This document shows positions 1,971 to 63,999 of a DNA stretch of 64,000 bases, piece by piece; position 1 is the stretch's first letter, and each line of letters starts with the position of its first letter. The notes beneath the pieces were generated by a model that saw nothing but the letters and a program-made list of their open reading frames with translations, was not told the origin of the DNA and ran no database searches. Location of the stretch: contig NW_026570290.1 in NCBI RefSeq assembly GCF_019649055.1, positions 677,261-741,260 on the forward strand. The letters are read 5' to 3'. Origin of the DNA: Paramacrobiotus metropolitanus. Taxonomy: Eukaryota > Tardigrada > Eutardigrada > Parachela > Macrobiotidae. A program made the position numbers and the translations under genes.

Positions 1971-2143
1971 GGCCCCTCACTATAATTATGGAGGAGTTTT
2001 GTAATAAATATTTCTGCGTCTTCAGTCAAGGCGCACGATTGGAGCAGTCAGTCTGAGTCGAACAGTGTTGCCAGTTATTTGCGCTGGATTTCTAAAAAGC
2101 TGGACAGTTTTTTTCCTTGCAGTGAGTCTCGCACAATGCAATA

Positions 2144-30541: not shown

Positions 30542-33500
30542 ATGAACCCCAAGGAAGCTACCGCGACCCTCATCGACTACATGCGCACCACGGGCTTCTT
30601 CCATTTCCAGTGCGGCCCCTGCTGTAAAACCTTCCCGCACAAATCCCTCCTTGATCTGCACAACGCCACCCATACCCCGCCCATCGAACCGCCCAGCCAG
30701 CGCCGATGTCCAGCCTGTGATTTCACCGGGAGCGACTTTCAGCAGCTGGCCGAGCATGCCATCCAGCACGCACTGCGGCCCGCCGACTGGATGCGGTGTC
30801 CGTTGTGCGGGCAGGAAGTGGGGCGTGTTATGGATACTCCCATGCGACGCCACCTGGAAGTCAAGCACCCCGGTGCGTTGGCGGCCATCTGGGCGGATTG
30901 GCCGTTCCCCTGCGAACACTGTCCACGGCGGTATTTTTTCCGGAAGGAACTGGTGCGACATATGTGCAAGATGCACCCGGGCGCCTCCTTACTGTCGGGC
31001 CTTGCGGAACCGTGTCCGTACTGCGGAAAACTGCTGACGAAGCTGAATCGGCATCTAGGACAGAATCGCTGCCCAGCCCCGTGGGATCAGAAGCCGTATC
31101 GCTGTCAACAGTGCCAGACCGGGTACTGCACTCACGGGAGCTTCATGTGGCACGTTAACAGCGTCCATGCGGGAGATGTCGCAGTTGGCTTCGGTACGCC
31201 GGTAATTTTCGGTTCTGCTTGTTAGAGTTTTATGGAAAATAAAATGCGAAAACAGTTGTCTGGATTGATTTTATGCATGTCGTACGGTACATTTTGCGTT
31301 TCCTTTCGGTTTGCACATAAGTTTAAAAAGGTGATTCTAATGGATTTTTGCACGGTTTGATTATCAACTGAATATTTCCGAAAGTCTGCTGACTTTTCTT
31401 CTGTTCGGTTTTTCATATCAGAATTTTGACAACCCACTGATTTTTCACATCATCATTAGGACAAACGACAGGTCATCTATCGGAGGAAGTTCGCACGTTG
31501 CCGGCCCAAGTTAGAAAAATCAAGGAAAGCCTTAAGAAAAAGTTTCGGCAAAATGCAAAGTCGGGTGAGATCGATTATCGTCTCTGTTTAATTTTCAATT
31601 TTACGTGATTACTAGCGCGAATTATATCTACCACGTGATTTAGCCTCTTCATTACAAGAAACATCAACCTTTTCCTCAGAGGAAGTGGACAAGTTTTCTG
31701 TTCAGGAGTTAGAAGGAAACACAGGTAAGGCTGGCTTTTGCCGATATATTTTGATTTTTCAACGTGCTGGTTTCTGTAGACGATAAAGATCCGAATCACG
31801 CTCCCGATGATCAGGCCCAGACGGACCTATCAAACGCTGAAAACCCTCCCTTACTTGAAGCAGCTTCCTGGAATGAACTCCAGTCACTCCCGGTGCGTGC
31901 AATTAAGGAAGAATTGTTTGGTTGGATGGATAACGATACATCGGAGCTTCAAATCAGCCAGCTGTGTCATACGGGGCTACCGTATGGAGAAGCGGATCCT
32001 TCTTCGGCTGACTGGAGTTCCGTTTGCCCCGCGGTACACGATGGCACACAATTTCGTGATACGACCCTTTCATGTGATCCAGGAGCGGAAATTGTTGATG
32101 ATGTAAACAATGCCTTGGTGTCAGCGCCGCCGTCCACTCAACCGGCAACAGAGTGTTTCGCAACGCCTGCAGGTATCCAAACTATAGGCTCATAGTAAAT
32201 GCTTCATGATCAGTGAAAATTAGATACAGTGTAAATTGTGTAATAGCCAAAATTTCTATCCTTCTTAGAATGAAAATTAAGGTACTTCACACAGCCGTGG
32301 CGCTTTTTCTATTAAGAATTAAACTGCAACGTTGCTTGAGAAAACACGTTGCACACTTGCACTTGCGCTTGTTATTGTAATCTGTATGTTGACGAACGTT
32401 CACGATCGCTTTACAGACACGCCTTCCGCGGGAAACACACCTACCGAGCCTCAGCCTACGGCATCTAGTTCAGTTCGTTCTTTCAAGCACGCTCGTGTAC
32501 CTAAACCAAAGAAGAAATCGTCTGTGATAAATAAAGGCAGTCTGATGGAAGGGGGGGATGACCACGACGATGCTATGGCGGCTGCAGACTGCGAAGAGGC
32601 TGGCTACCCTAGACCTTCAAATCTTTACAGGGTACCATCGCCAGCAGAGGTCGCGGTGGCCTGTGCTTACATGAAAGCCACCGGTTATTTCTATTACTTC
32701 TGTCCCCCGTGTCACAATACCTTCCCCACGAAGTCCTTACTTGATCTGCATAATACATTATGTCATCCTACCATGGATGCCGGTAACACTGACGAACCGA
32801 CTGAGAAATGTCCCGAATGTGATTGCACCGGTGAGGAGATGCTCCAGCATGTCAACCAGCACGCTTATCGCACGAAAGACTGGGTATCGTGTATAATCTG
32901 CGGCACAGCTGTCTGTCAGGATCGCGGAGCTCTGTATGCTTCCATTCGTCGGCATGTGGATGAGGAGCACCCGGAAGAGTTCGACGTCATCTGCGCCGAT
33001 TGGGAGCTGCAGTGCATGGAAGGGGATTGCCGGGAAATGTTCTTTGCCAGCGCACAGTTGGTGCGCCATATCAGCTGCATTCATGACAAAGAACGATGGG
33101 ACGATCAAGCGATCCCACTGGAGCGCAACGGGCCGATACCGTGTCAGCAGTGTGGTAAGCTGTTCGTGAACATGGAGGGTCTGTACACCCATATCGGTAT
33201 TTGTCATACGGGTACACCCGCCGACCAAATGGAAGCACGCAAAAAGCGGAAACAAACCAGGAAATATTACGGATCCAAACACGTCCTAGCGCGTTTGGCC
33301 CGCCGCCCGGAAGAGTTTCCACACCACTGCGGAAAATGCCCGGCCCGGTTCATGACGGAGATCGGTCTGCTGAACCACGATAAAATGCGGCATACCGGCG
33401 ACACCGCGGCTGCGGACGCGGAGGTGCTGCAGGAGAAGTTCCCGTGTTTGCAATGCCATCGCCGGTACGACAGCGGCCGGGGCTTGGCGGCTCATGTCCG

Positions 33501-36500
33501 GTTGTGGCATGAAGAGAAGCGGTGTGTGTACTGCGATGAGACGATAAAGGAATACAACTGGCACATGACGAAGCACAAAGTCGACGGCCAGTTTCCCTGC
33601 CCGCAGTGCCCGAATGTTTTTGACCGGTACAAGGCGCTTCTACGCCACATGGAGCAGTACCACTGGGCCCGGCATGTTTGTGTGACCTGTGGACACATCT
33701 GCAAGGGGAAGACGGCGTTCCGAGCGCATGCTCGCGAGTGCGGTGGAAGTATTGCGCAGAAGAATGTCCTCCAGTATGTAACGGATGATACGCCTGCCGA
33801 GCGTCAACATGATGACGAACTGGTACCGCGGAAAAAACGGGCTGGAGCGAAACGTAAGCGTCAGCGGATTGTTGGCGCGGGTACGTATGGATATTGCATG
33901 GTCGTTATGTAAACCGCGATAGACAAGGCATTCTACGTCTACGTTGCATACGGCTCAATTCTGTTCATACTTCGTACTCTGCATTTGAAGTAAATTTCGT
34001 GCCATAGATTCTCTAATTTAGGGTATGTGGATTGTTTTTTTTTTGCTAGCTATGGATGATACCAAGACGGAGCTACAATTACCAGCAAAAGCCGACGAAG
34101 CGGGAGCAAATGATGGTGCGCTGATTACAAATCTTGGCATTGTTTTATAGCCGTGGTTCGTATCTGTAATTCCTGTATGAGTAATGTGACTTTAATACTA
34201 TCCTTGTGTAGATTGTGTAGAATCCATGGTCTCGACCGGCGATGTGTCATTGTTGCGCGGTATCGACAAGAGCGACTTGGCTGCTCTACCGCACTGCGAT
34301 GCGGGGAATGGCGCTGACGCGGATGGAAATCTGACTGCGACTGGATCCTGTCCCGTTGACCTGCCGGGGAAATTCCGGTGCGCTCAATGTAATCGCAGCT
34401 ATGAGAGCGCTTGGGGCTTGGGTGCTCATGTCCGGTTGAAGCACACCGGGTTGCAGTGTGTGTATTGCGGGGTGACGCTGACGGAGTACATCTGGCATCC
34501 GGCGCAGCACAAAATCGACGGCGTGTTCCCCTGTACGCAGTGTGCGAGGGTTTTTGACCGGTATGCCGCGGTGAAACGCCATATGGACTGCCGCCATGCC
34601 GGCAGGCATGTCTGTGTGGCGTGTGGACATGTTTGCCCGGATAAGGCGGCGTTCGGAGAACATGCCGGAAAATGTATTGGAAGAACTGCGGAAAAGGATG
34701 TCGCAGACCCTGTAATGGACGGTAAGCCTGAGTTTCTCGCTGTTGTTTTTAAACAATTTTTTATTATATACTTAAGATGATTTGTTGAATCTCTATTCTG
34801 AGATGATTTGTTGAATCTCTGTCTTCTAGTTACGGATAACACTGAGATGGAGCTGCACATACCAAAGGAAACCGACGGCGCAGAAGTAAATGATGGTGTG
34901 TTGATCAAATTCAGTGTTTTCCTGCTCCTATCTGCAACTTCAATGTAACAATCATAATTTATTCTTTCAGGTTATGAGACATGCGCGAGCCCCTTAATAA
35001 CAACCAACAGACTATCATTATTGCTCGGCATCGACAACCGGGACCCGCCCGTTCTACCTCAGTGCGATCCGATAAATGGCGCTGACGCAGATGGAGATTT
35101 ACCTGCGACTGAATCCTGCTCCGTTGACTGCGCACTACCAGGTGCGACATTACCCGATAATGGTGAACTGGAGAGCTCTGCACAATTTACCTCACTACCG
35201 TTGGATGTTGGTCCGTCCGGTAACGACGACAACGACGACGATGCCGGGTTGTCCTTTGTTTCTTCCCCGGGTGAACCCTTCCCGGCTGGAGATAACGATC
35301 AGTGCGACTCGCCGGACCCTCTGGGAGCACTGATCCCGAGTGCTTCCCCGTCGCCGGCAGTGCCCACTGAAAAGTCGTGCGATACTCTACCTGCAGAAAT
35401 TCCCATTGGAGATTCATTAATGGAATTGCCCAATGGCATGGAGGAGTCCACCGCGTCCATCATTGATTACATGCGCACCACGGGAGTCTTTCAGTTCCAA
35501 TGCGCTCCCTGTCGTATACACTTCCAGCATCTCTCTCTGCTGGATCTTCACAACGCCACCCATACCCCGCCTACTGAACCCCTTAGTCAGCGCCAATGTC
35601 CAGCCTGTGATTTCACCGGCAGTGAGTTCCAGCAATTGGCCAAGCATGCCATCCAGCACGCACTGGGCAAAAGCGACTGGGTGGAGTGTCCGTTTTGCGG
35701 ACAGAAAGTGGGTCGTGTGAAAGATGACCGCATGCGGCTGCACCTGGGAACCAAACATCCCGGCGAGCTGGCGGCCATCTGGGCAGATTGGCCGTTCCCT
35801 TGCGAACACTGTCCGCGGCGGTATTTTTCCCGAAATGGATTGATGCGGCATACGGGAAAGATGCATCCGGGCGCCTCCTTACTGTCGGGCCTTACGGAGG
35901 CGTGCCCGTACTGCGGAAAAGTGCTGACGAAGCTGCATCAGCATCTAGGACAGAATCGCTGCCGAGCCCCGTGGGATCGGCTGCCATATCGCTGTCAGCA
36001 GTGTCAAAGCGGATTTTGCACTAACGGACAGTTCGTGCACCACGTTGACGCTGTCCATGCGGGAGATGTCGCAGGCTGCGGTAAGTCCGGGATTGTAAAA
36101 TAGAATCTTTGTTTGCTTCTTAGAGATATATGTTTTTGTTGCACGCTGTTTATGGACTTGATCTTGAATTTTGTACCGCGGACCACTGTTCGATTTTTCA
36201 TGCTTTTTGTACCCTTCGATGTAGGTGATGCCCAAGAAGATTTCTGTGCTCTCCCACGCGAAGGCACTGCTCCAGAGACGGCGCTACGTGTGTCTCCTGA
36301 TATTTCCGCTGATGATCCGTCGGCTGGTCCAACGTTACGGCGGAGCAAGCGTTTATCGACACGGCAGCAATCTGCTGCGTCGAAGCCGGAATTGCCGATG
36401 CTGACATTACCATCTGCAAAAGACCAATCTCCGATGAATGATTTTGATAAGCAACCCGAATTAATCAGTGCCGTTTCCGATGACGAGATGCTCCAAGATT

Positions 36501-39092
36501 CCACCTCAGAATGGGATGCTGAATCTGAGAAGTCCGAATCGGAGGAATCCGATGAAGAAGGGAATCCCCGTGTAAGAGTGGAAAAGTCGAAAGCACGACG
36601 GAAGCAGGGTGCGTCGGCCATTTCGGGGGATTGCTCAGAGCTAGAGACAATTAATAATGCAAGTAAGGGCCCGCAAAAGTCGGCACAGGATAAGGCGGAC
36701 AGGCATCAGGGCGGACGCCGAAATAAAGGACCACGCTGCCCAGTTTGCCGCAGTACGTCTTCTAAGATACGGATTGAGGAACATATCCGTGAGAAACATC
36801 CTGAAACGATTGCAACGCTTCCACCATTTATGATCTGCCTGTATCCGGGTTGTGGAGCCGCGTTTCTTACTGAGAGAGGCCTAAAGAACCACATGGCTAA
36901 GGTGGGTTATAGACGGACAGAGTACTGTAAATTGTAAAATTCGCAGCAAAAGGCGGAGAATCCGATAATAATTGTCTAGACCATTCCGTTCACAGTCTAT
37001 CAATTTTTCACTCCGTGCTCAAACTACCTTCCACTCTGACACAACCTTTAATTTTCCGGCACTGCCTTTAAAGCAGTTAGCTGTGTTGACTCAACTTACT
37101 GGCAAGTGCAAAGCACATATATTTTTTACATATACCGTGATTATCGAATTTGTGGCCCTGGGGTACACATAGTTCGAAGGCTATGGCGGAGGGGGCTTAT
37201 TTCGGGGAGGGGCGCATTTTCGGGGGGTGGCGTTATTTTTCGAACGCTATATTTTGGGAGGGGCATTATGTTATAAACAACTGCGCATCCTTTTCTAGTG
37301 AAACTGAACGCAATAATTACCGGTATACGCAACAGCGCAACCTTCCCAGCAATATTTTCGAGCATATACTTTTACTTAGTCCCTATACACCTTTTGTGCC
37401 AACTAATACCGCAATATGTTGATGTCCGTTTAGTTATTGCTCACACCACAATAATTTTTATAAAGCATTTGCGGTACACTTATCATTTTGCGCCGCATGG
37501 CATTTATTAGCGGTCCCCTGGGCGTAATTTCGGGGGGTGGCCGTATTTTTCAAACAGGGTCGGGGAGGGGGCTTATTACATTACAAGGGGGGGGGGGCTC
37601 TTATTGCGGGGGGGCACAAATTCGATAATTACGGTACTTTTTATACATATTGTAAGTTTGGTACCTTGGTCAGTTTAGTGGAACCCTGGATAGATGCAAA
37701 CAGTCTTCACATTTCTGTGTTTACGTAACTAACGTTTGTAAGTATAAAATTTGAAGGAGAGCGGGGAATAATGAAACTTTGGTACCAGTCGTTGTACGAG
37801 TACACCTGTTTGAGGTTTAACATTTTTTGAATCAATTTCACCCGCAACTCTCGCACCAGCGCACGAATGATTTTTTTTATGTTACAAATCATTGCGCTGC
37901 ACCGTGTGTGGTGCATCTGGTGCTATGCGCCAACTGCCAAGTTGCTTCCTTAAGAACGATTTTAGGAAATTACTTCTGTGTCCAGTGTAAGTATCTGTAA
38001 TATTTTAATAGATAAACTGACTTACTTTTTTATCGCTGAAAATTTCAGGCCCACCCCACCGGTACTCCTTGTAGCACGGTTTCGGAAGCCGATCGGCAGG
38101 CCGCTGCGGCGTACATTATCGAAACCGGTTTCCTGCATTTCCGTTGCACGGTGTGCCAGTTGAATTTCAGCCGAAAACCCCTGTTCGATCTCCACATGCT
38201 ACAGCACGCCGGTAGTGCCGTAGACTGCAGCGACAAGCGCCAATGTCCCGCCTGTGATTACACGGCAGCCCACCTCAAAGATTTATCCGACCACGTGGGG
38301 ACCCACGGATTCGGCTCCTGCACCCGGCAGCATTGCATTCTGTGCGGTCAGTGGATCAACAACCAAACTGGCGCCCGATTACGCCCGCACATGGATCGCT
38401 TCCATGCGGACGTGATGCTGCAGCGGAAGCAGCGGCAGCGTTTTCAGTGTGGCGAGTGCCAGAAGACCTTCGACACGGCCCACGCCAGGAACCAGCACGT
38501 GCATTATGTACATAAGAGGGCGGGAATGGTGTGTCTGTACTGCAGCACGATGATGCAGGGTATCAATCAATTCAATAAGCATGTCACTGAGCACAAGGTA
38601 GACAATGCGTTCCCGTGTCCACAGTGCACTGCCACATTCAGCACCTACCCGGAGATACGGGAACACTTTCGCAGCCACGATGCCAGTCGCACTTGTCTGA
38701 TTTGTCGGAAGGTGTGTCGCTCGGCAAAGCGGCTGGAAGGTCATCTGCGACTGTGTCTGAAGCAGAAAGCGTCGACCCGCCAGCGGGACCATCCCGCGTT
38801 GGACGACGGGGCAGCCATCGAGTTCCCGTGTTCGGTGTGCAGTAAGCGGCTTATGGGGATGCAAAGACTCCACAGCCATATGAAAAGGTGTCATTTTGTG
38901 GGCAGCGCCAAGGAGAAGCGGCTGCAGTGGAAGAAGGAGAAAGAGACCAATGCGCAGCTGAAGGCCTTCTTCCGACCCAAGAGAACCATGACGTTCGAGG
39001 AGTTTAATCATCGCTGCGAAGAGTGCCGGAAAGGGTTTCGATGGCGGGAGAATCTCCTCATCCATATTGACAAAAAGCACCCGTCTGGATGA
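30542..39092 (+). CDS. giant C2H2 zinc-finger protein 1
   Basis: Proposed exons: 30542..31193, 31460..31564, 31644..31724, 31780..32172, 32417..33880, 34050..34115, 34212..34721, 34830..34895, 34971..36080, 36225..36901, 38049..39092; 2,055 residues. Junctions 1-9 are phase 1 and the last is phase 0. About 37 fingers: six in A (exon 1), ten in D (exon 5), four in exon 7, six in the second A (exon 9), two in B (exon 10), nine in C (exon 11). The fingers lack TGEKP linkers, and several are C2HC (CPYCGKLL...HLGQNRC). Exon 4 has IKEE in VRAIKEELFGW, a sumoylation-type motif. Exon 10 has LRRSKRLS. Exons 6 and 8 are 66-bp copies, and exon 7 is a chimera. A nuclear nucleic-acid-binding role is inferred. 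It could instead be two or more transcripts, but the shared phases and the finger split across exons 10/11 favour one. Confidence 0.72.
34775..34826 (+). repeat. 26-bp tandem duplication in intron 7
   Basis: Two adjacent copies of a unit starting agatgatttgttgaatctct lie directly before the acceptor of exon 8 in zinc-finger gene 1. They differ only in the last few bases. Confidence 0.8.
37180..37620 (+). repeat. G-rich repeats in the last intron of zinc-finger gene 1
   Basis: Several diverged units of the form cgggg(a/g)gggg...ttattttt occur at about 37196-37270 and 37527-37620, including a G10 run near 37587. G runs of four or more are closely spaced on the plus strand, so G-quadruplex formation is possible. 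This intron sits where genes 2 and 3 carry the extra B' exon. Confidence 0.55.
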
Positions 39093-39541
39093 AAAAAGTT
39101 TTGAAATACCTTTTTTATTTACTTTAACTGTGAGTTTCTGGTTTCGTACTTTAATAACCTTTGTTAAATGGAACGCGCTAATATGTTACCGAGTTATTTA
39201 TTACGTAATTCCATGGTTTAGCTTGATTTTCTATTTCATTACCGCATGCCAGTGGGTTTTTTTTAAAACAAGGCTTAACGGATTTTGTCCGGTCTTCCTT
39301 TTCGCACTAATATTGTTAAAAGCAGCGCTTGAAAGAGACAGGTATGCGCATAACTGTGCATGCGCCTCACATTAGGTATTAGTACGACTATACGAGTGCA
39401 GTACTCCCCTTGATCTGGCCCATCTGGGTGATTAGGATTTGTTATTTGTATCCAACGCAGCGAGATGCTGCAATTGAGTCTTCGTCAAGAGCTAAAAAAA
39501 TTTATGGCGTCAGGAAGAGCGTCATCTGCTTACAGTACGAA

Positions 39542-39684
39542 TTCAAGCCGATCCGGATGATGATCACGTAATGGGCGGTAAAGGTAGAGCTATGCATATG
39601 GCCACTACACTACGTTTTGGTGTAACTAATTAATTTACATTTTTAGCCGTATGTTTTCGTGCTCATCATCCGGACCGGCTTGAA
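39542..39684. repeat. inverted repeat, 27-bp arms
   Basis: The arms 39542..39568 and 39658..39684 are reverse complements at 25 of 27 positions, separated by 89 bp. The arm starts ttcaagccgatccggatgat. It could be a short terminal-inverted-repeat element or a hairpin. No target duplication is evident. Confidence 0.7.
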
Positions 39685-40254
39685 CTGATAACACTTTGCA
39701 AATTCCGTACATTCATTATGATATGCCATTATGATATGTACAGACAGTACAGTTTATCGTATGTATACTTGTATATATCCAGTGATACTGAAGCTGTCTT
39801 TCAATGATGTGGCTAACTACCACCGCTAGTAATATACTGTAATTTAAATATTTGACCCGGGAATTATTCCCCTTGAAAGAAAAAAATTGCTCAACTGCGA
39901 TCGGTTTTACTTTACACAGTACAGTAAGAGTGAGTACAGTCGTTAAAGCAGATTCGCAGTTTCGTTTGTTGTTTTAGCGGCATGCAGCCTGCACCCGATC
40001 GACCGCACCGGAAGAGATGCGCGATATTTCTTGCATCCTGCCACCCAGTGGTAGCACGCAACGACGACGCGCTGTTTCATTGCATATGCAGTTATGCTTA
40101 CATTTCGTTGCCAAAGGCTCGAAATTATTTCTGTTTGGAAATACTAGTACAGAATTCAGAACTGCCGTTCTTGTTTTACGGATGTTGTGTTTCCCCTTCT
40201 TTTGTTTTCACGATCCAACAGCACTGCATGGATACTCAGTTGGAACTTGGATGT

Positions 40255-41468: not shown

Positions 41469-44400
41469 ATGAGTTCAACAGAGTCCGCCGCGTCCATCAT
41501 TCAGTACATGCGCACCACCGGTTTATTCCAGTTCTATTGCGCTCCTTGCGGTAAGTACTTCCAGCATCTCTCTCTGCTGGAGCTCCACAACGCCACCCAT
41601 ACCCCGCCTGCCGAACCGCCCAGCCAGCGCCACTGTCCAGCCTGTGATCTCACCGGCAGCGACTTCCAACAGCTGGCCGAACATGTCATCCAGCATGCAC
41701 TGGGCAAAAACGACTGGGTGCGATGCTCGTTATGCGGGCTGGAAGTTAGCCGGGTTAAAGATAACCGCATGCAGATGCACCTGGAAACCAAACATCCCGG
41801 CGAGTTGGCAACCATCTGGGCGGATTGGCCGTTCCCCTGCGAACACTGTCCACGGCGGTATTTTCTCCGGAATCGGCTGGTGCGACATGTGGGCGAGATG
41901 CATCCGGACGCTTCCTTGCCGTCGGACCCCACGGAGGTGTGTCCGTACTGTGGGAAAGTGGTGACGGTGATGCATCTGCATCACAGGAAGAACCGATGCC
42001 GAGCCCCGTGGGATCGGCTACCGTATCGCTGTCAACAGTGTCAGAGCGGTTATTTCACTCACGGACAGTTCATTCAGCACGTTAAGAGTGTTCATAGAGG
42101 TCAGAACCATCCGGACGCCGCCTTACCGTTGGACCACATGAAAACGTGTCCCTACTGCGGGAAACTGTTTACGGCGCTGCGTCAACATCTAAAACAGAAC
42201 CGATGCCCAGCCCCGTGGGATCAGAAGCCACATAGATGCTACCGGTGTCAGACCGGTTACTGCACCCACGGGAGCTTCATGCATCACGTTGCTAAAGCCC
42301 ATGCGGGAGATGTCACAGTTGGTTTCGGTAAGCCGGCGATTCAGATTTTGTCAACTGAATGTCCTGTTAACCGCATTTTATAAAAGATCGAGTAAGCTAT
42401 AGTTTTGTGTTGTACAAGTACCTGCAGTCTGCAGATATTGCGGGTGTACATATTAGTTAAAAAATTAGTTATCGATTAAAATTTTTCAGGAACTGTTTTC
42501 GAAAAGGCAGGCTTCGTGTAAAGATAAAGGGAATAATATGGTCTTCAGGGGAATAATACTGCTCTAGTATATGTTAGAAGAAGGAGATGAACGCTCATCA
42601 TGCTGCTCCGCAGTATTTCCAAATTTTCTAAATTGTTTCCTTTGTTTTAATTCGTTTGATTTTTTTGCATATCGTAATTTTGACATACCACTGATTTTTA
42701 GCGCCCTCGTTAGGACAAACAACAGCGGATCGATCGGAAGCAGTTGACGGGGCTCACCATCGCCCCCAGGACAAATTGGGTAACATTCCTTGGGTAAATT
42801 CTTCAAGTTTCGCACCATTTATTTTAACCTGTTTAACAGAAGAAGCAGAAGCCCCTTTGTTGGAGGAAGTCGACATATTTAGTACTAAGGACGTTAGCGG
42901 AAACTCGGGTAATGCTGATTTGTGCCAAAATGGCTGTGTCTCCGTTTAATGTTTGGACTATATAGGCACTAGTGATGTGAAGCGCGCTACCGAGAATCCG
43001 GTTCTTATCCAGACGGAATCCATTGATGGAGATCCTCCTTTACTTGGCCTCACGGTGTCGGACGAGTTAACAGCACTAACGGTGCGTGCCGTTAAAGAAG
43101 AACTGTTGGGCTGGGTGGACAGCGATCCCTGGGGACTGCACAGCAGCGAACACCGTAACACGGGGCTGCCGTTCGGAGAAGAGGATCCCGATGCGACTGA
43201 CTGTTCTGTTATCATCGAAACGGAGAATTCCATCGTGCCTGCGTTAGTTAACGTCACGGATGATTCCGACACCGGCGACACGGCCCTCTTGTGTGCTGAA
43301 GAGTTGCTTGCTGATGATGAGATTGATGCTCTCCAGACCACTACATCGTCTGAGGTTGGTGGTTTTAAACGTATTAGTCGGCTCAAATCCAAAAAAAAAA
43401 TCGCAGGTTGTGAACCGTCAAGATGATGCAATGATTAGTCTGGAAGACAGTCTAGCGCTTGCATTGTAAAAAAGATGATATTGTTTCCATTTTAAATATG
43501 ACATCCTTGTGTTGCGGCATATTAATGCAACATCGGTCACTTGGGATGGCGTTGTCTATTCATAAATTTCTTGATATATATTTTTTCTTGATATATTTTG
43601 CGCCAGCCAACGCCGACATTGCGACGGCGTGGTGTGCCCTAGTGAATAGACAGTAGTTTGGTTTCTGGTTATTTTCGCAATTTTGCAGAAACGTTCGAAA
43701 GCCGTAACAGTGCCATCGCCAGCGGATGTCGCGGTGGCTCGCTCTTACATGAAAACCACCGGTCATTTCAACTACTTCTGTCCCCCGTGTCGCAGCACCT
43801 TTCCCACGATGCCGTTGCTTGATCTGCATAATGCATTATGTCATCCTATGACGGATGCCGGCAGCATTGATGTACCGGTAGGGAAGTGTCCCCAATGTGA
43901 TTACACCGGTCAGGAGATGCTCCAGCATGTTAATCAGCATGCTTTCAGCAAGAAAGACTGGGTACCGTGCTTACTCTGCGGCGAGGAAATCTATCAAAAA
44001 GAGACACATCTGTATAGTAAGATGCGTCGGCATGTGGAAGAACGGCACCCGGAAGAGTTCGATGCCATCTGCCCCGATGGGGAGCTGCAGTGCCCGGAGA
44101 TGGATTGCCGGGAAAAGTTCTTTTCCAGCGCACAGTTGGTGCGCCATATCAGCTCTGCTCATGAGAGAGAACGAGGGGACGATCAAGAGACCGTGTTGGA
44201 TCGGGCAACGCTTGAAGACCGGATGCAAGCACGGGACAACCCGAAAAGGAAATATCAAGGTGCCCAACATGTCCTGAGATTTCTGACCCGCCTCCAGGAA
44301 GAGTCTGGATACCAGTGCGATAAACGTCCGTCCGGGTTCATGGCTGAGGTATCTCCGTTGAATCACCTGAAAACCCACCATCCGGACGACAATGCGGTCC

Positions 44401-50400: not shown

Positions 50401-51543
50401 GTTAAAGTACAACTTTTTTCAGGAAATTGCTTTTACTGTTTTTCTAGTAGCACTTTGTATTTCATTGGATGAATTATATATCGCTAAAAATTGCAGGCCC
50501 ATCCCACCGGTAACACCACGGTGTCGGAAGACGATCAGCAAGTTGCTGCGGCGTACATTATCGAAACCGGTTTCCTGCATTTCCGCTGCACGGTGTGCCA
50601 GTTGAATTTCAGTCGAAAACCCCTGTTGGACCTCCACGTACTGCAGCACGACAGTGCCGTTGACCGCGAGGAACAGCGTCAGTGTCCCGCGTGTGAATAC
50701 ACGCCTGCCAGCCTCACTGATTTATCCCAGCACGTCAACGTACATGGGTTCGCCATGTCGCTTAGGCAGCGCCAGCCGTGCATGCTGTGCGGTAAATCGA
50801 TTTTGAACTATCACGGTAAGAATTTACGCGTGCACATGGAACGGGTCCATGCGGACGTGATGTTGCAGCGGAAGCAGCTGCAGAGTTTTCCATGTGGCAA
50901 GTGTGAGAAGACCTTCGATACGGCCTACGCCATGAAGCAGCACGTCAACATCGCGCATAAGAAAACCATGTGTCTGTACTGTTGCACGCATTTCGCGAGC
51001 TGCAAAGAGTACCACGTACATGTGGCGGAGCATAAGGTGGAGGGTGTGTTCCCCTGTCCGCAGTGCACGGCCTCCTTCAGCTCCTACATGGCCATACGAG
51101 GACACTTTAGCATTCATGATGCCAGTCGTGTTTGCCTGATTTGTCGGAAGGTGTGTCGTTCGGCGAAACGGCTGGAAGGTCATCTGCGACATTGTGTGAA
51201 ACAGAAAGCGCCGACACGGCAACGGGAACGTCCCGAGTTGGACGACGGGGCGGCCATCGAGTTCCCGTGTTCCGTATGTAATAAGCGGCTGGTGGGGATG
51301 CAGAAGCTCTTCTGGCATATGAAAAGCCGTCATTTTGTGGGCAGCGCCAAGGAGAAGCGGCAGCAGTGGAAGAAGGAGAAGGAGACCAACGCGCAGCTGA
51401 AGGCCTTCTTCCGTCCCAAGAGAACCATGACGTTTGAAGAGTTTAATCATCGCTGCGAAGCGTGCCGGAAAGGGTTTCGGTGGCGGGAGAGTCTGCTCAG
51501 CCATATTGAGAAAAAGCATGCGTCGGGAGGGAAAAACTTCTGA
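41469..51543 (+). CDS. giant C2H2 zinc-finger protein 2
   Basis: Proposed exons: 41469..42327, 42714..42779, 42840..42908, 42966..43354, 43689..44838, 46463..47752, 48052..48932, 49916..50251, 50497..51543; about 2,028 residues with about 35 intact fingers. Exon 1 has eight fingers: the last pair (CPYCGK...NRC plus YRCQQCQ...H) is duplicated. Exon 5 (D) has lost one finger and one Cys of another (CDKRPSGF). Exon 6 is the second A with an acidic Ser/Pro-rich N-part. Exons 7 and 8 (B, B') each end in a finger completed by AH of the next exon. Exon 7 holds a strong basic NLS-like stretch (RKRKAKK ... KRRKRD). Exon 4 has VKEE in VRAVKEELLGW. The exon 4/5 junction is uncertain because of an A10 run (43391-43400) and competing donors at 43354 and 43406. 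No 66-bp linker exon is seen. Confidence 0.68.
46038..46165. repeat. inverted repeat, 20-bp arms, in an intron
   Basis: Arms 46038..46057 (gctgccgtcacccggctgga) and 46146..46165 are reverse complements with one mismatch, 88 bp apart, within the long intron before the second A exon of zinc-finger gene 2. Confidence 0.65.
46339..46375 (+). repeat. short dispersed repeat
   Basis: The sequence gaacatagaggaccttcgct and the following bases closely match 326-355 at the left end of the window (gaacatagaggacctccgct). It is probably part of an interspersed element of unknown type. Confidence 0.4.
49510..49700 (+). repeat. dispersed repeat copy in zinc-finger gene 2 intron
   Basis: Shares ordered blocks with 4711-4860, 55000-55100 and 61395-61520: ggtaccaaattcgt, atgcacgaaaac, ttttatgaca and gtttgtgcgcgcagcatccg. 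It lies in the intron between the B and B' exons. Confidence 0.4.
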
Positions 51544-54291: not shown

Positions 54292-57200
54292 ATGGATTCC
54301 GCGGGGTCCACCGGGTCCATCATCGATTACATGCGCACCACGGGTTGCTTCCAGTTCCACTGCGCTACTTGCCGGAAAACCTTCCAGCATCTTTCCCTCC
54401 TGGAGCTCCACAACGCCACCCATACCTCGCCCGCCGAACCGCCCAGTCAGCGCCAATGTCCAGTCTGTGATTTCACCGGCGACGACTTCCAACAGCTGGC
54501 CAAGCATGTCCTCCAGCACGCACTGCGCCGCAACGACTGGGTGCGGTGTCCCTTTTGCAATCAGGAAGTTGGTCGTATGGTCGATGCCGCCATGCGAGTT
54601 CACCTGGAAGCCAAGCATCCCCGGGAGTTGGAGGTCATCTGGGCGGACTGGCCGTTCCCCTGCGAACACTGTCCCCGGCGGTATTTTCTCCGAAAGTGGC
54701 TGGTGCGACATGTGGGCCAGATGCATGCCGGCGCCTCCTTATCACCGGAAGACACGCAGACGTGCCCGTACTGTGGGAAAGTGTTTACGGCGCTGCATCT
54801 GCATTTGAGCAAGAACCGGTGCCGCGTCGCGTGGGACATGAAGCCGTATCGCTGTCAACAGTGCCAGACCGGGTATTGCACTCACGGGAGTTTCATGCAC
54901 CACGTTGTTAAAGCCCATGGGGGAGATGTCCCAGTAGGCTCTGGTAAGTCTTAGAGCCGGTGATTGTTTGGTCGACTAAAGCCTTATTGTTTTTATATTA
55001 AGGGATGTGCCGGTACATAAGGCAGATTCGTTTACATGCACGAAAACTGCACTTTCGTGAAATCCAAAGCACCTTTTTGCCTATTTTATGACGTTGTAAC
55101 GAGACTTTTTGTATACTTGATTCAGTTGATTGCGTTTAGTTTTTTGGAGCTTTCCAGTAGGCAGAATTCCCTAACCGTATATCACTTTTCACGCAGAGTT
55201 ATTTCAGTCTCTGGGTACTGTCATACAATAGCTACAATAATGCAAAACGTGTTCGAGATTGTGCAAAAGCGAAAGTTTTCGTGTGTGTCGCACGGAGTGA
55301 GTAGTAGTACCATTTATCGCATATCCATTATTCGCATGCAGGCGCCTTTTAAAGGCTGAACGGTAAAAATACCTTTTCCGAATAGAGTGAGAAGGAACAG
55401 AATACGCTCACCGCAATATCCCGCACTTCCAAGCTCTTTTAATCTGCCTGCTTGATTTTTTTAGATTTGTACTCCTGTTCATCCTTTTGACATACCTCTG
55501 ATTTTTAGCATTATCTTTAGGGCAAACGACAGCGGTTGGGTCGGAGGCAGTTGATGCGTTTTCTGCTCACAGTGAGGATTTGCCGGAAAACTCGGGTAGC
55601 ATTTTCTTCGGTATGGTCTTCAAGGATCGCATTTTTTATGTACCACGTCTTTCCGCCTGTTTTTAGATGGAACACCAGCCGCTTCCTTGGAGGAAGAGAA
55701 CTTGCTTGCTGTCCAGGATTTTCGGGAAAATGCGGGTAATGATGGCCTAGGCCGCACTGAGTGGAGGTCAGAATCGGCTTAATTCGCACATGCAACATTT
55801 GTTTCTGTAGACGACCGTCTCGACGCCGATGTGACACACGAGCCGGATGATCCGGTCCTTCCCCAGACGGAATCCAGTGTTGGAGATCCTGCCTTAATTG
55901 CCACCTCGGAGGCGGACGAATTAATAGCATTACCGGTGCGTGCCGTCAAAGAAGAACTGTTGGGCTGGGTGGACAGCGATCCCTGGGGATTGCACAGCAC
56001 CGAACACCGTAACACGGGACTGCCGTACGGAGAAGCGGATCCGGATGCAGCTGGCTGTCTGTCTGCAACCAGTCCGGGGAATTCTGTTAGTCCAGCGGTG
56101 CAGGATGGCTCGGGATTCGGCGACACGACCCGGTTGTGCGCAACAGCGGAACGTGTTGATAGGGGAACGAATGCCCGCGCGTCAGCGTCGCCTTATATTC
56201 GTACTGCAAAGATTTGTGCAGCCCCTCCAGGTTATGGCGATTATTATTGTTACTCAGCTTATATTGGCGGAACGTTCATGTTGGACGTTATATTATAGGC
56301 ACGCCTTCTGCGACTGGCTGCCGTCCTGTGATCGTACCGGCGCGTTCCATGATCCCTGCGCTAGTTGAGGACACGGAAGATCTTGATACGACCCTCTTTT
56401 GTACAGAAGAGTTGCTTGCTGATGATGAAATCGATGCCCTTGTGCAGCCCCTGTCCATTCCTCGAACTGGTGAGATATTCGCAGCAACAGCAGGTTATTG
56501 TGATTATTATGATTTTCTAATTGTGATTATTGTTATTGCGATTAGTATTATGATTCTTATTTGATTATGATTATTGTGATCAATACTGTTACCGCACTAC
56601 GTCAGTCAAACTCTGTTAACAGTTTTATCGTGCAGGCGATTTGAAAACGTTCGTGATTAACTGCAAAAGTTTACACTTGATGGGTTAGGTTTTCTGAGGT
56701 AACAATTTCCCGTTTCCGGCCTTTCGAACGAACCCAGGTTATGCAGTTTTAAGGCCATGCAATTGCAGTCGTATTACTACCAAGCCGTGGATGTGATTAC
56801 TGTTATTGTGCTACAGTGACTAAACCACTTTACGGGACAGCAATAGTGTACTAAATTGTAGTCGCCATGTTCACCGTTCGCGGAATGTTCGTGCTACCCT
56901 TAATTAACACGCCTTAAGCGGAAAGTACATGCGCCCTGCACAGTTCAGCGCCTCAAGTTCTTCCTTTTTTTAGAAGTAGATCATCGATTAAAATCAACGA
57001 AGAAATTGGCAGCGCGGAACAAACAAGATGCGGTGAGCGGTCAGAATAACGCCGATGGCGCGGAAGCATCTCCCAACGTTTTCCGTTTGCACGCGTATGG
57101 TGGACGACACGGTGTGCCTGAAAAACCCGTTACCCTGCCATCACCAGCGGAGATCGCAGTCGCCTGCGCTTACATGAAAACCACCGGTTATTTCTACTAC

Positions 57201-60200
57201 TTCTGCCCCCCGTGCCGCAGCCCTTTCCCAACGAAGCCCTTGCTCGACCTGCATAATAAATTGTGTCATCCTCCGACTGATGCCGGCAACACTGACGAAC
57301 CGGCCGAGAAATGTCCCGAATGTGATTACACCGGTGTGGACATGCTCCAGCACATTAACCAGCACGTTTTTATCAAGGAAAACTGGCTGCCCTGCTTGAT
57401 CTGCGGCGAATCAATCTATCTAGGCCATAGAAATGGGTATCATAAAATGCGTCGGCATGTAGATGAGGAGCACCCCGAAGAGTTTGCTGCGATTTGCGCC
57501 GATTGGGAATGGCAGTGCATGGAGATGGACTGCCGGGAGATGTTCTTTTCCAGCGCACGGTTAGTGCGCCATGTCAGCTTGGCACATGACACAGAACGAG
57601 GGGACAGTCGCGAGACCGTGCCGGACCGCAACGCGCCGACGCCGTGTCAGCACTGCGGTAAGGTGTTGGCGGGCATCAATGGTTTGTACAAGCATCTGGA
57701 ATTGTGTGTTACGGGAACGGCGGAAGACCAGATGGAAGCACGGAAGAAACGGAAACTGAGAAGGAAATATTATGTCACCAAACAGGAACTAAGACGGCGG
57801 GCTCGTCGCTTGATGGAGTTGACCTATCACTGCGAAGAAAGCCCGCCCGGGTTCATGACGGAAGTATCTCTGCTGAACCACGTTAAAATGCGACATACCG
57901 GCGACAATGCGGTGTCGTCAGGGACGTTCCGGTGCCGGCAATGTGATCGGGGCTTTAACAGCGTCAAGGGTTTGGCTGCTCATATCCTAAGGAAACATCA
58001 GGGATGGAAGTGTGTGTATTGCGGTGTATTGATGACCAATCACATGGTGCATCCGACGCAGCACAGAGTCGACGGCCGGTATCCCTGTCCGCAGTGTACG
58101 AGTGTCTTTGACCGGTATATCCGCATGACGGGACATATGGAACGCTGCCATGGGTCCGTATCTATTCGTGAGGGATCGGCTGGATTGGAAGCACATGTGC
58201 GCGAGTGCGGTGGAAGTGATGCGGGAAAGGATGTCCTGCAGTGTGCAACGGACCATGACGCTTCTCAGCACGAACACGACGGCGGAGTAGTTTTGCGCAA
58301 GAAACTGGCCAAAGCGAAACCTGCTTGTCAGCGGGCTATTGACACGGGTAAGTTCACTGAGTCAGTGATAAAGTAACATAAAAAGTGGAGGCCGGCCAGT
58401 CGGTCCGCGGTTCAGAATATTATTGCTGTATAAATATTTTTCGTAAAGCCTTTTCTTTCAAGGCATACCTTGAAAATTGTTAACAGCAACATATTTTGGA
58501 AGTGTTTTTGTAATCCAGTTTTATCCTTCGCAATTTTGCCAGTTTCTAGCTAACGTAGAAGCCGAAGCAGGTTCTTGTACTAGATACGGACAGTAGTGAG
58601 AGGGAACTGCTCTCACCAGCGGAAGCCGACGAAGATGGAGTAAACAACGGTGCGTTGTTTAGGAGAATTGTGCAGTGCCGGGTTAAGAAAACTGATGCTT
58701 CGATGTAACCCATACTGCGCAAATCAGCGCGTGTCTGTTTGATATGATTATTTGGCGATTATACGCATTGAATGCTATCCTTTTTCACACTCTTTGTTGA
58801 TTGTTTGATTTAATATATGGTATAGTAAATTTGCGTTCTACTAAACATCAGTAATTTTTGCATCCTGGTTTAGATTGGCCCGCCGCTGACCACTGGACGA
58901 CCGACACGTTATCATTGCTGCTCGGCATCGATAACCGGGACCCACCTATTTTACCGCAGTGCGAGCCGGTGAATGGCGCTGACACGGAAAGAGTTGCGCA
59001 TGAAAATCATCCTGTTGATTACGCATCGCCGTGTACTGCGTTAGCCATGAATGGGGCACTAGAGGGTTCTCTACAGTGCAGTTTCTTACCGCCAGATGTC
59101 GGCCAGTCCGATATGCTCAGCCACGACACCAATATAGACGGCTTATTTGTGTCTTCCCCTGCCGAAAGCTTTCTTGTTGGAGATCATGATCAGTATGACC
59201 CATCGGATTCTAGAACTGCATTGTCTCCGTGTGGCTCGTCACCACCGACACCGGCGATTGGATCGTCGTATAGCGCTCCGCCTGCGGAAATTGTCAGTAT
59301 AGAATCATTAGTGAACGTGTGCGATGACATGGAAGCCGGCATTGTCGGCTCCCCGTATCCATCTTCCTCTCGCGAGTCCTTGCCAGCTGGAGAGAACGAT
59401 CAGCCAAACCTGTCGGGCCCTTTGAAGGTGCTGCTCCCGTGTCCTTCCCCGTCACTGACAACGACCACTGAACAGTTGTCCGATACTCTGCCTGAGGCAA
59501 TGCCTAGCAGAGATCCATTTTTGGAGACGTCCAATGGCGTGAATTCGGCCGAGATCACCGCGTCCATCATCGATTACATGCGCACCACCGGTTTCTTCCT
59601 GTTCTACTGCGCATCCTGCCGTAAATACTTTCAGCAACATTCCCTCCTGGAGCTGCACAACGCCACCCATACCCCACCCGCCGAACCGCCAAGCCAGCGC
59701 CAGTGTCCAGCCTGTGACTTCACCGCCAGCGACTTTCAACAGCTGGCCGAGCATGTCATCCAGCACGCACTGCAGCAGGAGGACTGGATGCGGTGTCCGT
59801 TGTGCAAGGAGGAAGTTTGCCGTGTCAGAGGTAGCCGCATGCGAGAACACTTTGAAGCCGAACACCCCCAGGAGTTGGAGGTCATCTGGGCGGATTGGCC
59901 CTTCCCCTGCGAACACTGTCCTCGGCGGTACTTTTTCCGGAAGTGGCTGGTACGGCATATGGATCAGAACCATCCAGGCGCCGCTTTGCCGTCGGACCAT
60001 GCGAAAGTGTGTCCGTACTGCGGGAAATCATTTACGGCGCTGGATCTGCACCTGAGCAAGAACCGATGCCGCGTCGCGTGGGACAAGAAGCCGTATCGCT
60101 GCCGTCAGTGCCAGACCGGGTATTGCACACACGGCAGCTTGATGTGGCATGTTAAAAGTGTCCATGCGGGAGATGTCGCAGTATGCTCCGGTAAGCCGAT

Positions 60201-63200
60201 GATCATACGTTAGGCCGAAAATTTAATAGTTTTGCGATAGCTTTACTTATGAACCATGCAAGTATGCATCGCTTAAGTAAAGATGCGGGTTTTAAACGAA
60301 AGATTTATCCGAGTTAATAGGAGAAGGGACCCTCAACTCACCGTTTAATTTGCAGAGATTTTCTAAATCGCCGGGTCAGTTGTTTGTTGTGTAATTTTGT
60401 ATAGCATTCTACTATATCATGATTTTGATATGGTGTAGGAGACGAATATCCTGCGAAATCTCCCCGAGGTCGCAAGAGAAAAGCTGAAAAGGGTCAGAAA
60501 ACAACGAAACGTAGCAAACGGGATTTTCCTCAGGACGCTGCGGATTGTTTACCGGCGGAGGCGATTGTCGCCCAGGCTAGCGAAACATTGTTATCTGCGT
60601 CGGTTCAGGGCGTTGCTCTGCGCCATTCTCCTGATATTTCCGCTGATACCGAACTGGCTGCCCCGTCACTACGACGCAGTCAGCGCTTATCGAAACTGCC
60701 GCAGTATTCTACAACCAAACCGCAGGATCGCAGCACTAGTCCAAAACCAAGAGAAACACTAACACCTGCGACGGCATCGCAGATGAAAGCAAACGGATTG
60801 CCGTCAGCAGAAGACGACCCCGCGATAAGTTATCATGACGAACAGTTTGTATTAAACAATGCAGTTTCCGATGGGGAGATGATCCAGGATTCTTCTTCGG
60901 AGTGGGATGTTGAATGCGCGGCGTCTGCATCTGAATCCGAGGGAGCCGATGAAGGATGTGATGACTGGTCCAGATTAAGAATGGCGGCAAAACGACGGAA
61001 TCCGTGTGCTTCACAGAGAGGGAAAGACGGTTCACCGTCGAAGACCGTCAAGGATACGCGTCATAATCATAAGACCTCTGCGCAACATAATCCCAAGCCG
61101 GGCAGGTCAAAGCCCAGGGCCCGGGTCCCGAAGGCAGGCACACATTGCCCAGTTTGCAAGAGATACTATAAAGAAATTCAGGAGCATTGCCGCGTACAAC
61201 ATCCAGAAGTGGTTGCCAAGCTAATTCCCTGTAGTCATGCGGATTGTCGGGGAGTGTTTCTAACACAGAGAAACTTACGGGACCACTTGTTGGGGGTGAG
61301 TTAACTACTAATTTATTCAAGTGTTAAGGGTACTAAAAATTTTCCGCCGCAGCAAAGCGAAGATTCCGAACTTAAGTTACTTTGAATTCACGGGAAATGG
61401 CCCGGTTCAGGGTACCAGTATTGTATACATCTAGTGAAACTTTCTCGAACGCCGAAATCTTTATTCCATGATTACTAGCCTGAAAAGCGTTTTTGCGCCC
61501 AACATCCGATTTGCTGAGCGGTATCGCGAACTAAAATGGGCAGAAAGTTTAAACGCGTTCTCATGCGCCATATTATCAAAGTCAGGTTATGATCCGATTT
61601 TCTTGAGACTACAAAATGCAAAGTTTTCTAAAGGAAGCAAAACATTTCCGGTAGCATAATAATCTTCCTACAGTTTCAAAGCGAGTTTTGAATTTTCTCG
61701 AATGCATTTTAAAGTGTGACAAAAGCGCCACACAGTTGGTTTTGGTTCAGATTCTGCTTTTCAGTTATGTGAATTTTGCAGGGAAGTTTCACAAATATTG
61801 GGTGGTGACCTGACCTTTGGTGCACGATAGTGCGTTCAAACGTTTTGCTTAAAGTGTATTTTAATTCGCATATCACAGAAATCGCGCGTTGCGCATACAG
61901 GCGGCCTTTCGTGCCAAAATGTAAAAATGGTTTGATTGAGGAATAACATAAAACGGCACAGAGTGTGTGGAGTTCGCGAAAGCGGAAGTTTCTGTCATAC
62001 GTTGTGTAGCTTGTGCACCAATTTGGTAGCGTACATGACCCCGTTTCCTTTCAGTAGAGCTCTTTCAGAAAACTATTTTAGTTCTGCATAGGTATCACGC
62101 ATTGTTTTACATTATGTGGATTACCTACATTTTGATGAATGAAATTTGCAGAGCGTTCACAACTCCGTGGTCTGTGGTACAAACAAAAATCCACGAAAGT
62201 CAGCGACGCGTAAGCGGAAACCGGACACACCTCGGCTCGGGCTCCCGACGGTCGCCACCCACTGTCCAGTTTGCGGATGTCAGTGTGAAAAAATTGAGCA
62301 ACACTACCGGGAAAACCATCCAGAACTGGTTGGAAAGCTTATTTCGTGTCAGCAGACGAATTGCAAGAGAGCGTTTCTCACACAGAAAGGATTACGGTCG
62401 CACGTGGTTCGGGTGAGGTCCATCGGCGATATGTGTAATTTGGTACTAAGAATCTCAGAACAACCGATGATTGCGAAATCAGTTGGGCTTTGATTTTAAG
62501 AGAATTTACCGTTATATGCCAAGTGTATGTACCGGTATCGTTTACCTATTGTAACATTCACTTTCGGGATTCACAAAATCTTAATACCATTCTACAACCA
62601 GCATAAGCTGTCCGCTCCCGATCATTTCGGCCACGTTCCATCTCGGGCGCACAGAATTACTTTGGCCAGCACTCGATTCGGCCAACTAATGTTTTTTTAT
62701 GGTTTCTTATGTTTGCTGTTTTTTGTTTGTTTTCGTATGATTTCTTATGTTTCTTCAGCTCCTTGAATTCCTTAGGGTTCATTATATTTTTTACGCCGAA
62801 GTAATCGTCGGCCGAAATGAACGTTGCCGAAACGAAAACGGCCGGAGTAATCGGTGGCCCCTTTAATCTAACATCTTGTGTAATAAAATCGCGATGTCAC
62901 AGTAACAGCGTAATGATTTATTACGTGAATTAGTAAATTTTATTGTTGCAAATTACAGGCCCATCCTAACTCTGTCGCAGTTTCCGAAGCCGATCAGCAA
63001 GCCGCTGCAGCGTACATTATCGAAACTGGTTTCCTGCATTTCCGCTGCACGGTGTGCCGGTTGAATTTCAGCCGAAAATCCCTGTTGGATCTCCACACAC
63101 TGCAACACGATGATGCCGTGGACGGCGAGGAGCAGCGCCAGTGTCCCGCCTGCGAGTACACCGCCGCCAGCCTTACGGATTTATCCGCCCATGTGGGGAT

Positions 63201-63999
63201 CCACGGGTTCGCCACATATGCCCAGCAGCCGTGTGTGCTGTGTGGCACGTCGGTTACTAACCACGGTGGTTCCAAATTGCGCGTGCACATGGAGCGGGTC
63301 CATGCGGACGTGATGCAGCAGCGGCAGCAGCGTCAGTGTTTTCAGTGTGACGAGTGCCAGAAGACCTTCGACACGGCCTACGCCCTGAAGCAGCACGTGG
63401 ACAGAGCGCATAAAAATCCGGGACGGATGTGTTTATACTGTAACACGAGTATCGCGAGTTTCAAAAAATTTGACCTGCACGTAACGGATCATAAGGTGGA
63501 CGATGCGTTTCCCTGTCCACAGTGCACGGCCACATTCAGCAGCTACCCAGACCTACAAGAGCACTTTCGCAGCCATGATGCCAGTCGTGCTTGTCTGATT
63601 TGTCGGAAGGTGTGTCGCACGGCGAAGCGGCTGGAGCGGCATCTGCGAGGATGTCTACGACAGCAAGCAGCGAAGATCCCATGGCGCCGCAGTCAACCGA
63701 AAGAGCCCGCCATCAAATTCCCGTGTTCGGTTTGTGGTAAGCCGATGGGTGGGGTGGAAACCTTGCAGCTGCATATGAAAAAACAGCATTTTATCGGGAG
63801 TGACCAGGAGAAAAAGCAGCAGTGGCGCAAGGAGAAGAAGACTAATCCGCAGCTGAAAGAATTCTTTCGACCGAAGAAAACCATGGCGTTCGAAGAGTTT
63901 AGCTATCGGTGTGAAGAGTGCCGGGAAGGCTTTCGATGGTTGAGTGGTTTTCGCATGCATATGGAGAAAAATCATGCATCTGTAGTTGACACAATATAA
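54292..63999 (+). CDS. giant C2H2 zinc-finger protein 3
   Basis: Proposed exons: 54292..54943, 55521..55595, 55667..55735, 55811..56230, 56299..56469, 56974..58347, 58584..58649, 58874..60190, 60439..61295, 62152..62412, 62959..63999; 2,100 residues with about 33 intact fingers. The stop is one base before the window end. Exon 1 is the same length as in gene 1 (652 bp). Exon 4 carries VKEE in VRAVKEELLGW. Exon 5 repeats the acidic LLADDEIDAL segment as a separate exon. In the D exon (56974..58347) two fingers have decayed: CEESPPGF lost a Cys, and the last lost its whole Cys pair. Exon 7 is the 66-bp linker. The B exon has a basic NLS-like stretch (RGRKRKAEK...KRSKRD) and LRRSQRLSKL. B ends HLLG|SVH and B' ends HVVR|AH, completing fingers across introns. 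C has nine fingers. Confidence 0.74.
55000..55100 (+). repeat. dispersed repeat copy in zinc-finger gene 3 intron 1
   Basis: Resembles 4711-4860 and 49510-49700: ggatgtgccggtaca, attcgtttacatgcacgaaa and ttttatgacgt appear in the same order. Confidence 0.35.
56485..56585 (+). repeat. imperfect gattatt-type simple repeat
   Basis: A run of imperfect gattatt / gttattgtgatta units directly follows the donor of exon 5 in zinc-finger gene 3. It is intronic low-complexity sequence that leaves the frame open by chance. Confidence 0.6.
61395..61520 (+). repeat. dispersed repeat copy in zinc-finger gene 3 intron
   Basis: Shares ggcccggttcagggtacca...gtatacat and gtttttgcgcccaacatccg with the copy at 49510-49700 and lies in the equivalent B to B' intron. 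It may therefore be inherited from the gene duplication rather than a separate insertion. Confidence 0.35.

What the first reader, a model, noticed from the sequence alone, without database searches (positions are those of the whole stretch)
30542..63999. Tandem triplication of a ~2,000-residue zinc-finger gene built from nested modules
Three plus-strand copies share the exon order A, two short acidic exons, VKEE exon, D, (linker), A, B, (B'), C. Gene ends are 12.45 kb apart twice; starts are 10.9 and 12.8 kb apart. I do not recognise this architecture of about 33-37 fingers without TGEKP linkers as any named family.
Basis: partly seen in the sequence, partly recalled or inferred. Interest (0 to 1): 0.85.

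Follow-up and report, generated by a model that had tools for sequence, protein, structure and literature searches.

The report
Tripled giant water-bear zinc-finger gene
Three neighbouring copies of a very long zinc-finger gene in a water-bear genome belong to a clustered family of some forty to sixty related genes, built from a repeated four-finger block, that probably read DNA to control genes or mobile DNA.

Summary
Observation confirmed. Three plus-strand units (30542-39092, 41469-51543, 54292-63999) give uninterrupted spliced models of 2067, 1954 and 2030 residues with 37, 34 and 33 fingers and no TGEKP linker. The genome is a tardigrade's, probably Paramacrobiotus metropolitanus. The units are not isolated. 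Exons A, D and C share one module, a short helix ending in TG plus four C2H2 fingers; one module query gives 150 matches, 102 within 0.8 Mb of one contig. A C-terminal signature gives 60 matches, 41 at E<1e-5. Members share an exon rule: a two-finger exon ends between the zinc-binding histidines of its second finger and the next exon supplies the last one (5 of 5 junctions here; 12 of 13 genes elsewhere). Fingers 1-2 keep a fixed helix; finger 4's DNA-contact positions change faster than the rest of that finger in 7 of 7 paralogue groups, but not in the small D and C sets. Best reading: a lineage-expanded DNA-binding family pairing scaffold with reader fingers; the giants add A/D modules and a private exon with one SUMO-type motif. 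Transcripts, binding and range in other animals are untested.

The parts
30542..39092 (+). Unit 1, modelled gene of 11 exons, 2067 aa, 37 fingers
   Evidence: open splice-site model
41469..51543 (+). Unit 2, modelled gene of 9 exons, 1954 aa, 34 fingers
   Evidence: open splice-site model
54292..63999 (+). Unit 3, modelled gene of 9 exons, 2030 aa, 33 fingers
   Evidence: open splice-site model
30542..31193 (+). U1 exon A1, begins with Met. The homologous donor G|GTACG ends it at 31193; the scoring model chose a weaker site 8 bases on (31201)
   Evidence: conserved donor seen in 6 of 6 A exons
35459..36055 (+). U1 exon A2, module core
41469..42327 (+). U2 exon A1, begins with Met; its last two fingers are repeated
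   Evidence: (family D12)
47131..47727 (+). U2 exon A2, module core
54292..54943 (+). U3 exon A1, begins with Met
59566..60162 (+). U3 exon A2, module core
31780..32172 (+). U1 VKEE exon (IKEE in this copy), the protein's only psi-K-x-E motif
43013..43354 (+). U2 VKEE exon (acceptor uncertain, possibly 42965)
55811..56230 (+). U3 VKEE exon
32417..33880 (+). U1 exon D
43689..44838 (+). U2 exon D
56974..58347 (+). U3 exon D
34212..34721 (+). extra partial D copy, unit 1 only
   Evidence: (family D13)
36225..36901 (+). U1 exon B, second finger split by the intron
48253..48932 (+). U2 exon B, second finger split by the intron (5' end uncertain)
49916..50251 (+). U2 exon B', second finger split by the intron
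60439..61295 (+). U3 exon B, second finger split by the intron
62152..62412 (+). U3 exon B', second finger split by the intron
38049..39092 (+). U1 terminal exon C
50497..51543 (+). U2 terminal exon C
62959..63999 (+). U3 terminal exon C

Best explanation
The three units are tandem copies of one gene for a ~2,000-residue DNA-binding nuclear protein, and they are the largest members of a lineage-expanded, clustered C2H2 family in this tardigrade. Shown by sequence: the triplication; one module (short helix ending in TG plus four fingers) in the A, D and C exons and in every cluster sampled; the split-finger exon junction; purifying selection on the A modules; and finger-specific evolution, in which fingers 1-2 keep fixed helices (Leu, Val or Met at helix position 3 and Leu, Ile or Val at position 6 of finger 1) while the contact positions of finger 4 change fastest. 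Inferred: fingers 1-2 and the short finger 3 are scaffold or partner-binding, fingers 4-6 read DNA, and duplication makes proteins with new targets. Inferred and weakest: the private VKEE exon, which holds the protein's only psi-K-x-E motif, is a SUMO-dependent effector segment, so that the giants act as chromatin-bound repressors, perhaps of mobile DNA.
For: Open models of 2067, 1954 and 2030 aa. Module found as 56 full copies in the window and 30 sampled loci. 150 genome matches, 102 in 0.8 Mb of contig C17. Split finger 5 of 5 here and 12 of 13 elsewhere, with 14 alike two-finger exons. dN/dS 0.21-0.47 in 15 of 15 pairs of A modules. Finger 1 helix hydrophobic at positions 3 and 6 in 56 of 56. 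Finger 4 contact positions faster than the rest of the finger in 7 of 7 groups (mean pN 0.42 v 0.20), finger 1 in 2 of 7, finger 2 in 3 of 7; 9 of 42 fingers at P<0.05 in whole exons, none of them a finger 1 or 2. One psi-K-x-E per protein, always in the VKEE exon. Basic stretches in all three.
Against: No RNA, protein or binding data. pN/pS at finger 4 contacts is 0.60-0.95, not above 1, so relaxed constraint is possible. One of the seven groups has P=0.38 and another 0.051. The D and C sets of the window show no finger 4 effect (pN 0.16 v 0.20 and 0.08 v 0.20). No TGEKP linkers and only 2-3 gaps of canonical length per protein. Contact residues of finger 4 are only partly polar (35% at position 2, 40% at position 6). 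The psi-K-x-E motif is short; about two per protein would be expected by chance (my estimate).
Confidence: 0.55

Rival explanations
1. The modules bind protein or RNA rather than DNA. Variation in finger 4 is drift on a free surface, and the family grew by neutral tandem duplication.
For: Non-canonical linkers; hydrophobic helix of finger 1; pN/pS at finger 4 contacts under 1; no finger 4 effect in the D and C sets; the predicted module does not match DNA-bound arrays as a whole shape (TM about 0.2).
Against: Finger 4 contacts exceed helix positions 1 and 5, which are also exposed, in 6 of 7 groups and tie in the seventh. Fingers 1-2 act as an internal control without the effect. Fingers 5-6 of several exon sets show it too.
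Confidence: 0.3
2. Each unit is two or more genes: A1 to D as one and A2 to C as another.
For: The A module occurs at the start and again in the middle of each unit; D and A2 are separated by a long intron (about 1.6 kb in U2; coordinates).
Against: A1 opens with a Met after an upstream in-frame stop, whereas A2 sits inside an exon with 160-240 residues of open, conserved linker before the module. Order and spacing are kept in 3 of 3 units. A single open model exists for each.
Confidence: 0.12
3. The three copies are an assembly artefact of one gene.
For: The published assembly of the likely species was built from noisy long reads (PMC8277472, passages).
Against: Exons differ by 20-40% and the compared intron by more; each unit has its own insertions.
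Confidence: 0.01

Closest known systems
KRAB zinc-finger genes of tetrapods (recalled; review PMC4592553 seen as a search listing only)
   Same: Lineage-expanded, clustered multi-finger genes; an effector segment apart from the fingers is proposed here
   Different: No KRAB domain in the exons scanned; no TGEKP linkers; fingers spread over many exons
ZAD-ZNF genes of insects (recalled; PMC7655104 seen as a search listing only)
   Same: Large invertebrate lineage-specific C2H2 family
   Different: No ZAD match in the exons scanned
FiNZ zinc-finger genes of cyprinid fish (PMC10547256, passages)
   Same: Expanded family with an acidic extra exon and, in that paper, positive selection on the fingers
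   Different: FiNZ genes have one short N-terminal exon followed by one exon of fingers; here there are many finger exons and a split finger. FiNZ similarity itself was not tested
ZNF451 (Pfam PF23107)
   Same: Fingers 3-4 of U3 exon C score 34.5 bits, over the cut-off of 30
   Different: U2 exon C scores 23 bits, under the cut-off; the rest of ZNF451 was not compared
CTCF and other solved polyfinger proteins
   Same: Best solved-structure matches by sequence profile and by fold
   Different: Finger-level resemblance only: TM about 0.2 for the module

Membership tests
KRAB-ZFP | KRAB domain | tested here: not met
   Pfam scans of representative finger and non-finger exons at E<=0.1 list no KRAB; the short exons E2, E3, Dx, Ex were not scanned
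KRAB-ZFP / Krueppel type | TGEKP linkers between fingers | tested here: not met
   0 TGE[KR][PF] in three proteins; gaps of canonical length 3, 2 and 2
ZAD-ZNF | ZAD domain | tested here: not met
   no ZAD (same limits)
FiNZ-ZNF | FiNZ 28-residue N-terminal sequence | not tested
   no FiNZ sequence was on hand
ZNF451 | ZNF451-type finger pairs (PF23107, PF23108) | tested here: inconclusive
   PF23107 34.5 bits v cut-off 30 in U3 exon C, PF23108 27.2 v 29; PF23107 23 bits in U2 exon C; 7 of 12 modules match PF23107 at E<=0.01
The clustered tardigrade family described here | Helix-TG plus four-finger module | tested here: met
   12 of 12 window modules aligned with 21 invariant columns; the profile built from them finds 44 further full modules in the sampled loci (56 in all)
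The clustered tardigrade family described here | Two-finger exon with the second finger split between its two His by an intron | tested here: met
   5 of 5 junctions in the window; 12 of 13 genes elsewhere
The clustered tardigrade family described here | C-terminal finger with the PR...DF...C-x2-C...GF signature | tested here: met
   all three units are among the 60 matches, weakly (E 2.2e-5, 7.1e-5, 1.1e-3)
The clustered tardigrade family described here | Presence in other tardigrades or animals | not testable with these tools
   G000 has no relatives here and no other animal genome was on hand

The most novel reading that the evidence does not exclude
Tardigrades evolved, apart from KRAB, ZAD and FiNZ genes, their own large clustered DNA-targeting system whose repeating unit couples fixed scaffold fingers to fast-changing reader fingers. 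The three giants carry a private SUMO-dependent silencing exon, and the family polices mobile DNA or chromatin in an animal for which the papers searched report no such system.
Probability: 0.25. Interest if true: 0.75.

Novelty: new variant of a known kind. Interest (0 to 1): 0.5.

Why it matters
Expansions of C2H2 genes are reported to track mobile DNA across animals (PMC10547256, passages; its main text holds no word beginning 'tardigrad'). A tardigrade example whose module separates constant from variable fingers would be an independent case with a clear test: which fingers read DNA, and whether they follow the animal's own mobile elements. The split-finger exon junction is a simple marker for finding the family in other genomes. 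If ordinary, it is still a large gene family of an extremophile model that I found described in none of the listings searched.

Tried and rejected
Assembly echo: rejected by divergence. Chance finger-like frames: rejected by 56 full modules found with one profile and by open spliced models. A known family with the same order: Pfam gave generic fingers plus the ZNF451 match told above; solved structures gave generic finger arrays and nothing for the VKEE segment. Strong positive selection at finger 4: not shown, pN/pS stays under 1. The first paralogue grouping caught only 2 members of one group through a faulty pattern; one search has 9 there, but its pattern lost 1 of 5 members of another group. 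The seven groups hold 42 of the 56 modules; the D and C sets were tested only and show no finger 4 effect. Of 116 profile hits, 56 were kept (E<1e-18 and over 110 profile positions). One search tested only fingers of canonical C-to-H spacing (42 of them), so finger 3 is almost untested. The structure of the A module rests on one good model: mean pLDDT of the five was 82, 77, 47, 47 and 46. Papers: only PMC12941274 (passages and its section 2.1; it treats C4 fingers), PMC11191345, PMC8277472, PMC5531438 and PMC10547256 (passages) were opened; the other titles were seen as listings only.

Full report
What was checked. The window is G000:C70:677261-741260 of a 169.8 Mb assembly in 533 contigs. 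A recalled CAHS protein gives 20 matches, the best two at 65% and 71% identity, so the animal is a tardigrade. The size fits Paramacrobiotus metropolitanus (170 Mbp in PMC11191345, passages; 170,483,395 bases in 684 scaffolds in PMC8277472, passages). The contig numbers differ, and the species name is inference.

The triplication. The A exon is present six times, and pieces of D and C three times each. A splice-site model joining the exons of each unit stays open from Met to stop: 2067, 1954 and 2030 residues with 37, 34 and 33 fingers. Start and end spacings agree with the finding. Five genome searches list no match on this contig outside the window, so there are three units as far as these capped searches see. 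Between units the exons compared are 60-80% identical and the B-C intron 42-54%. Unit-specific changes exist: U1 has an extra partial D piece, and U2 exon A1 repeats its last two fingers (families D13 and D12).

One module underlies A, D and C. Aligned, the 12 copies share a short helix ending in TG and four fingers, with 21 invariant columns. A profile of these 12 finds 56 full modules in the window plus 30 loci sampled from the other clusters. Single-protein searches of the genome give 119 matches (A query, 150 of 188 candidates scored), 72 (D query, 98 of 98 scored), 150 (C query, 150 of 221 scored) and 113 (first module of a C17 gene, 150 of 199 scored). Of the 150, 102 lie on C17 between 704 and 1,520 kb. 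The other 48 are C70 12, C104 10, C73 10, C12 8, C448 3 and one each on C49, C166, C168, C47 and C482. In a midpoint-rooted tree of the 56, the window's C modules fall beside first modules of other genes, while A and D pair with each other (support 100 for A, D and C each, 77 for A+D).

A family-wide exon rule. In the window every B and B' exon ends three residues after the first His of its second finger. The next exon begins with AH, or SVH in one case, which completes an H-x4-H finger in 4 and an H-x5-H finger in 1 of 5 junctions. Outside the window I examined 13 genes. In 13 of 13 the module exon begins with Val-His or Ala-His after AG, and in 12 of 13 a two-finger exon that ends exactly after H-x3 before GT lies within 1,500 bases upstream. 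The thirteenth (L006) has none in its fetched stretch. Fourteen such exons are alike in sequence. GT after H-x3 also occurs inside uninterrupted fingers, because GT begins a Val codon. So the likeness of the exons and the end of the frame carry the argument, not GT alone. The C-terminal signature gives 60 matches at E<=0.01, of which 41 are at E<1e-5; that is a rough count of genes, and the weaker ones may include ordinary fingers.

Which fingers evolve. The A modules are under purifying selection (dN/dS 0.21-0.47 in 15 of 15 pairs). The helix of finger 1 is hydrophobic at positions 3 and 6 in 56 of 56 modules. Finger 4 contact columns are more variable than random columns (P=0.004 over 56 modules), unlike those of finger 1 (P=0.93) and finger 2 (P=0.47). 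Within paralogue groups finger 4 contacts change faster than the rest of the same finger in 7 of 7 (P 0.026, 0.051, 0.027, 0.032, 0.025, 0.378, 0.020). Finger 1 does so in 2 of 7 and finger 2 in 3 of 7. Over whole exons 9 of 42 fingers reach P<0.05: two are fingers 4, six are fingers 5 or 6 and one is the terminal finger; none is a finger 1 or 2. Against this, the D and C sets of the window show no such effect at finger 4, and pN/pS at the contacts is 0.60-0.95, so relaxed constraint remains possible.

What is special to the giants. The VKEE exon has 3 matches in the genome, all in the window, no Pfam family and no solved relative. It carries the single psi-K-x-E motif of each protein, the usual SUMO acceptor pattern (recalled). 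Chance would give about two in a protein of this length (my estimate), so its worth lies in its conserved place. The B fingers have 5 matches in the window and 3 weak ones elsewhere (E 0.02-0.06); the B exons of other members are recognisable by position and plan rather than by this search.

Structure. The best of five models of the A1 module has separate beta-beta-alpha fingers (pLDDT 82, pTM 0.56); three of the five models were poor. It matches DNA-bound arrays finger by finger but not as a whole (TM about 0.2). This neither shows nor excludes DNA binding.

Verdict. Observation confirmed, interpretation partly supported. It is an apparently undescribed family of a known kind (lineage-expanded clustered C2H2 genes) with an unusual module and exon plan. 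That it is undescribed rests on the listings and on the five papers opened.

Noticed in passing
window 5121-26900 (nine ORFs of 324-398 aa; eight on the minus strand, 6820-7923 on the plus strand): A tandem family of nine related multi-helix membrane proteins. Pfam finds only a sub-threshold odorant-receptor match in one of nine (E 0.068). A model from their alignment (pLDDT 69) has insect olfactory and gustatory receptors as its 14 best structure matches, but weakly (E 0.011-0.054, TM 0.41-0.56, none at E<=0.001): probably tardigrade members of the gustatory/odorant receptor superfamily.
   Followed up: partly
window 2126-2899 (+): An exon of a rhodopsin-class GPCR (Pfam 7tm_1, E 4.3e-20).
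   Followed up: no
A1 and A2 modules of the three units: In unit 3 the two A modules group with each other (support 83 DNA, 85 protein) rather than with the same-position copies of other units, which suggests gene conversion or a late internal duplication; the other groupings are weakly supported.
   Followed up: partly
window 41896-42341: The last two fingers of U2 exon A1 are repeated in tandem (spacing 207 bases).
   Followed up: no
L002:174-1514 (C104) and L009:4948-8292 (C17): Mobile elements lie among the zinc-finger genes: a reverse transcriptase frame (RVT_1, E 6.2e-18) and a frame with an integrase zinc-binding domain (E 2.5e-6) and a sub-threshold Ty3 capsid match.
   Followed up: no
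L006:2-1405 (C17 about 850 kb) and L020-L024 (C17 1.30-1.46 Mb): A second branch of the family has a shorter module start (CFMY[SR]C...DLHQL). One member has a non-finger N-terminal part with a twice-occurring INPFQY-like motif.
   Followed up: no
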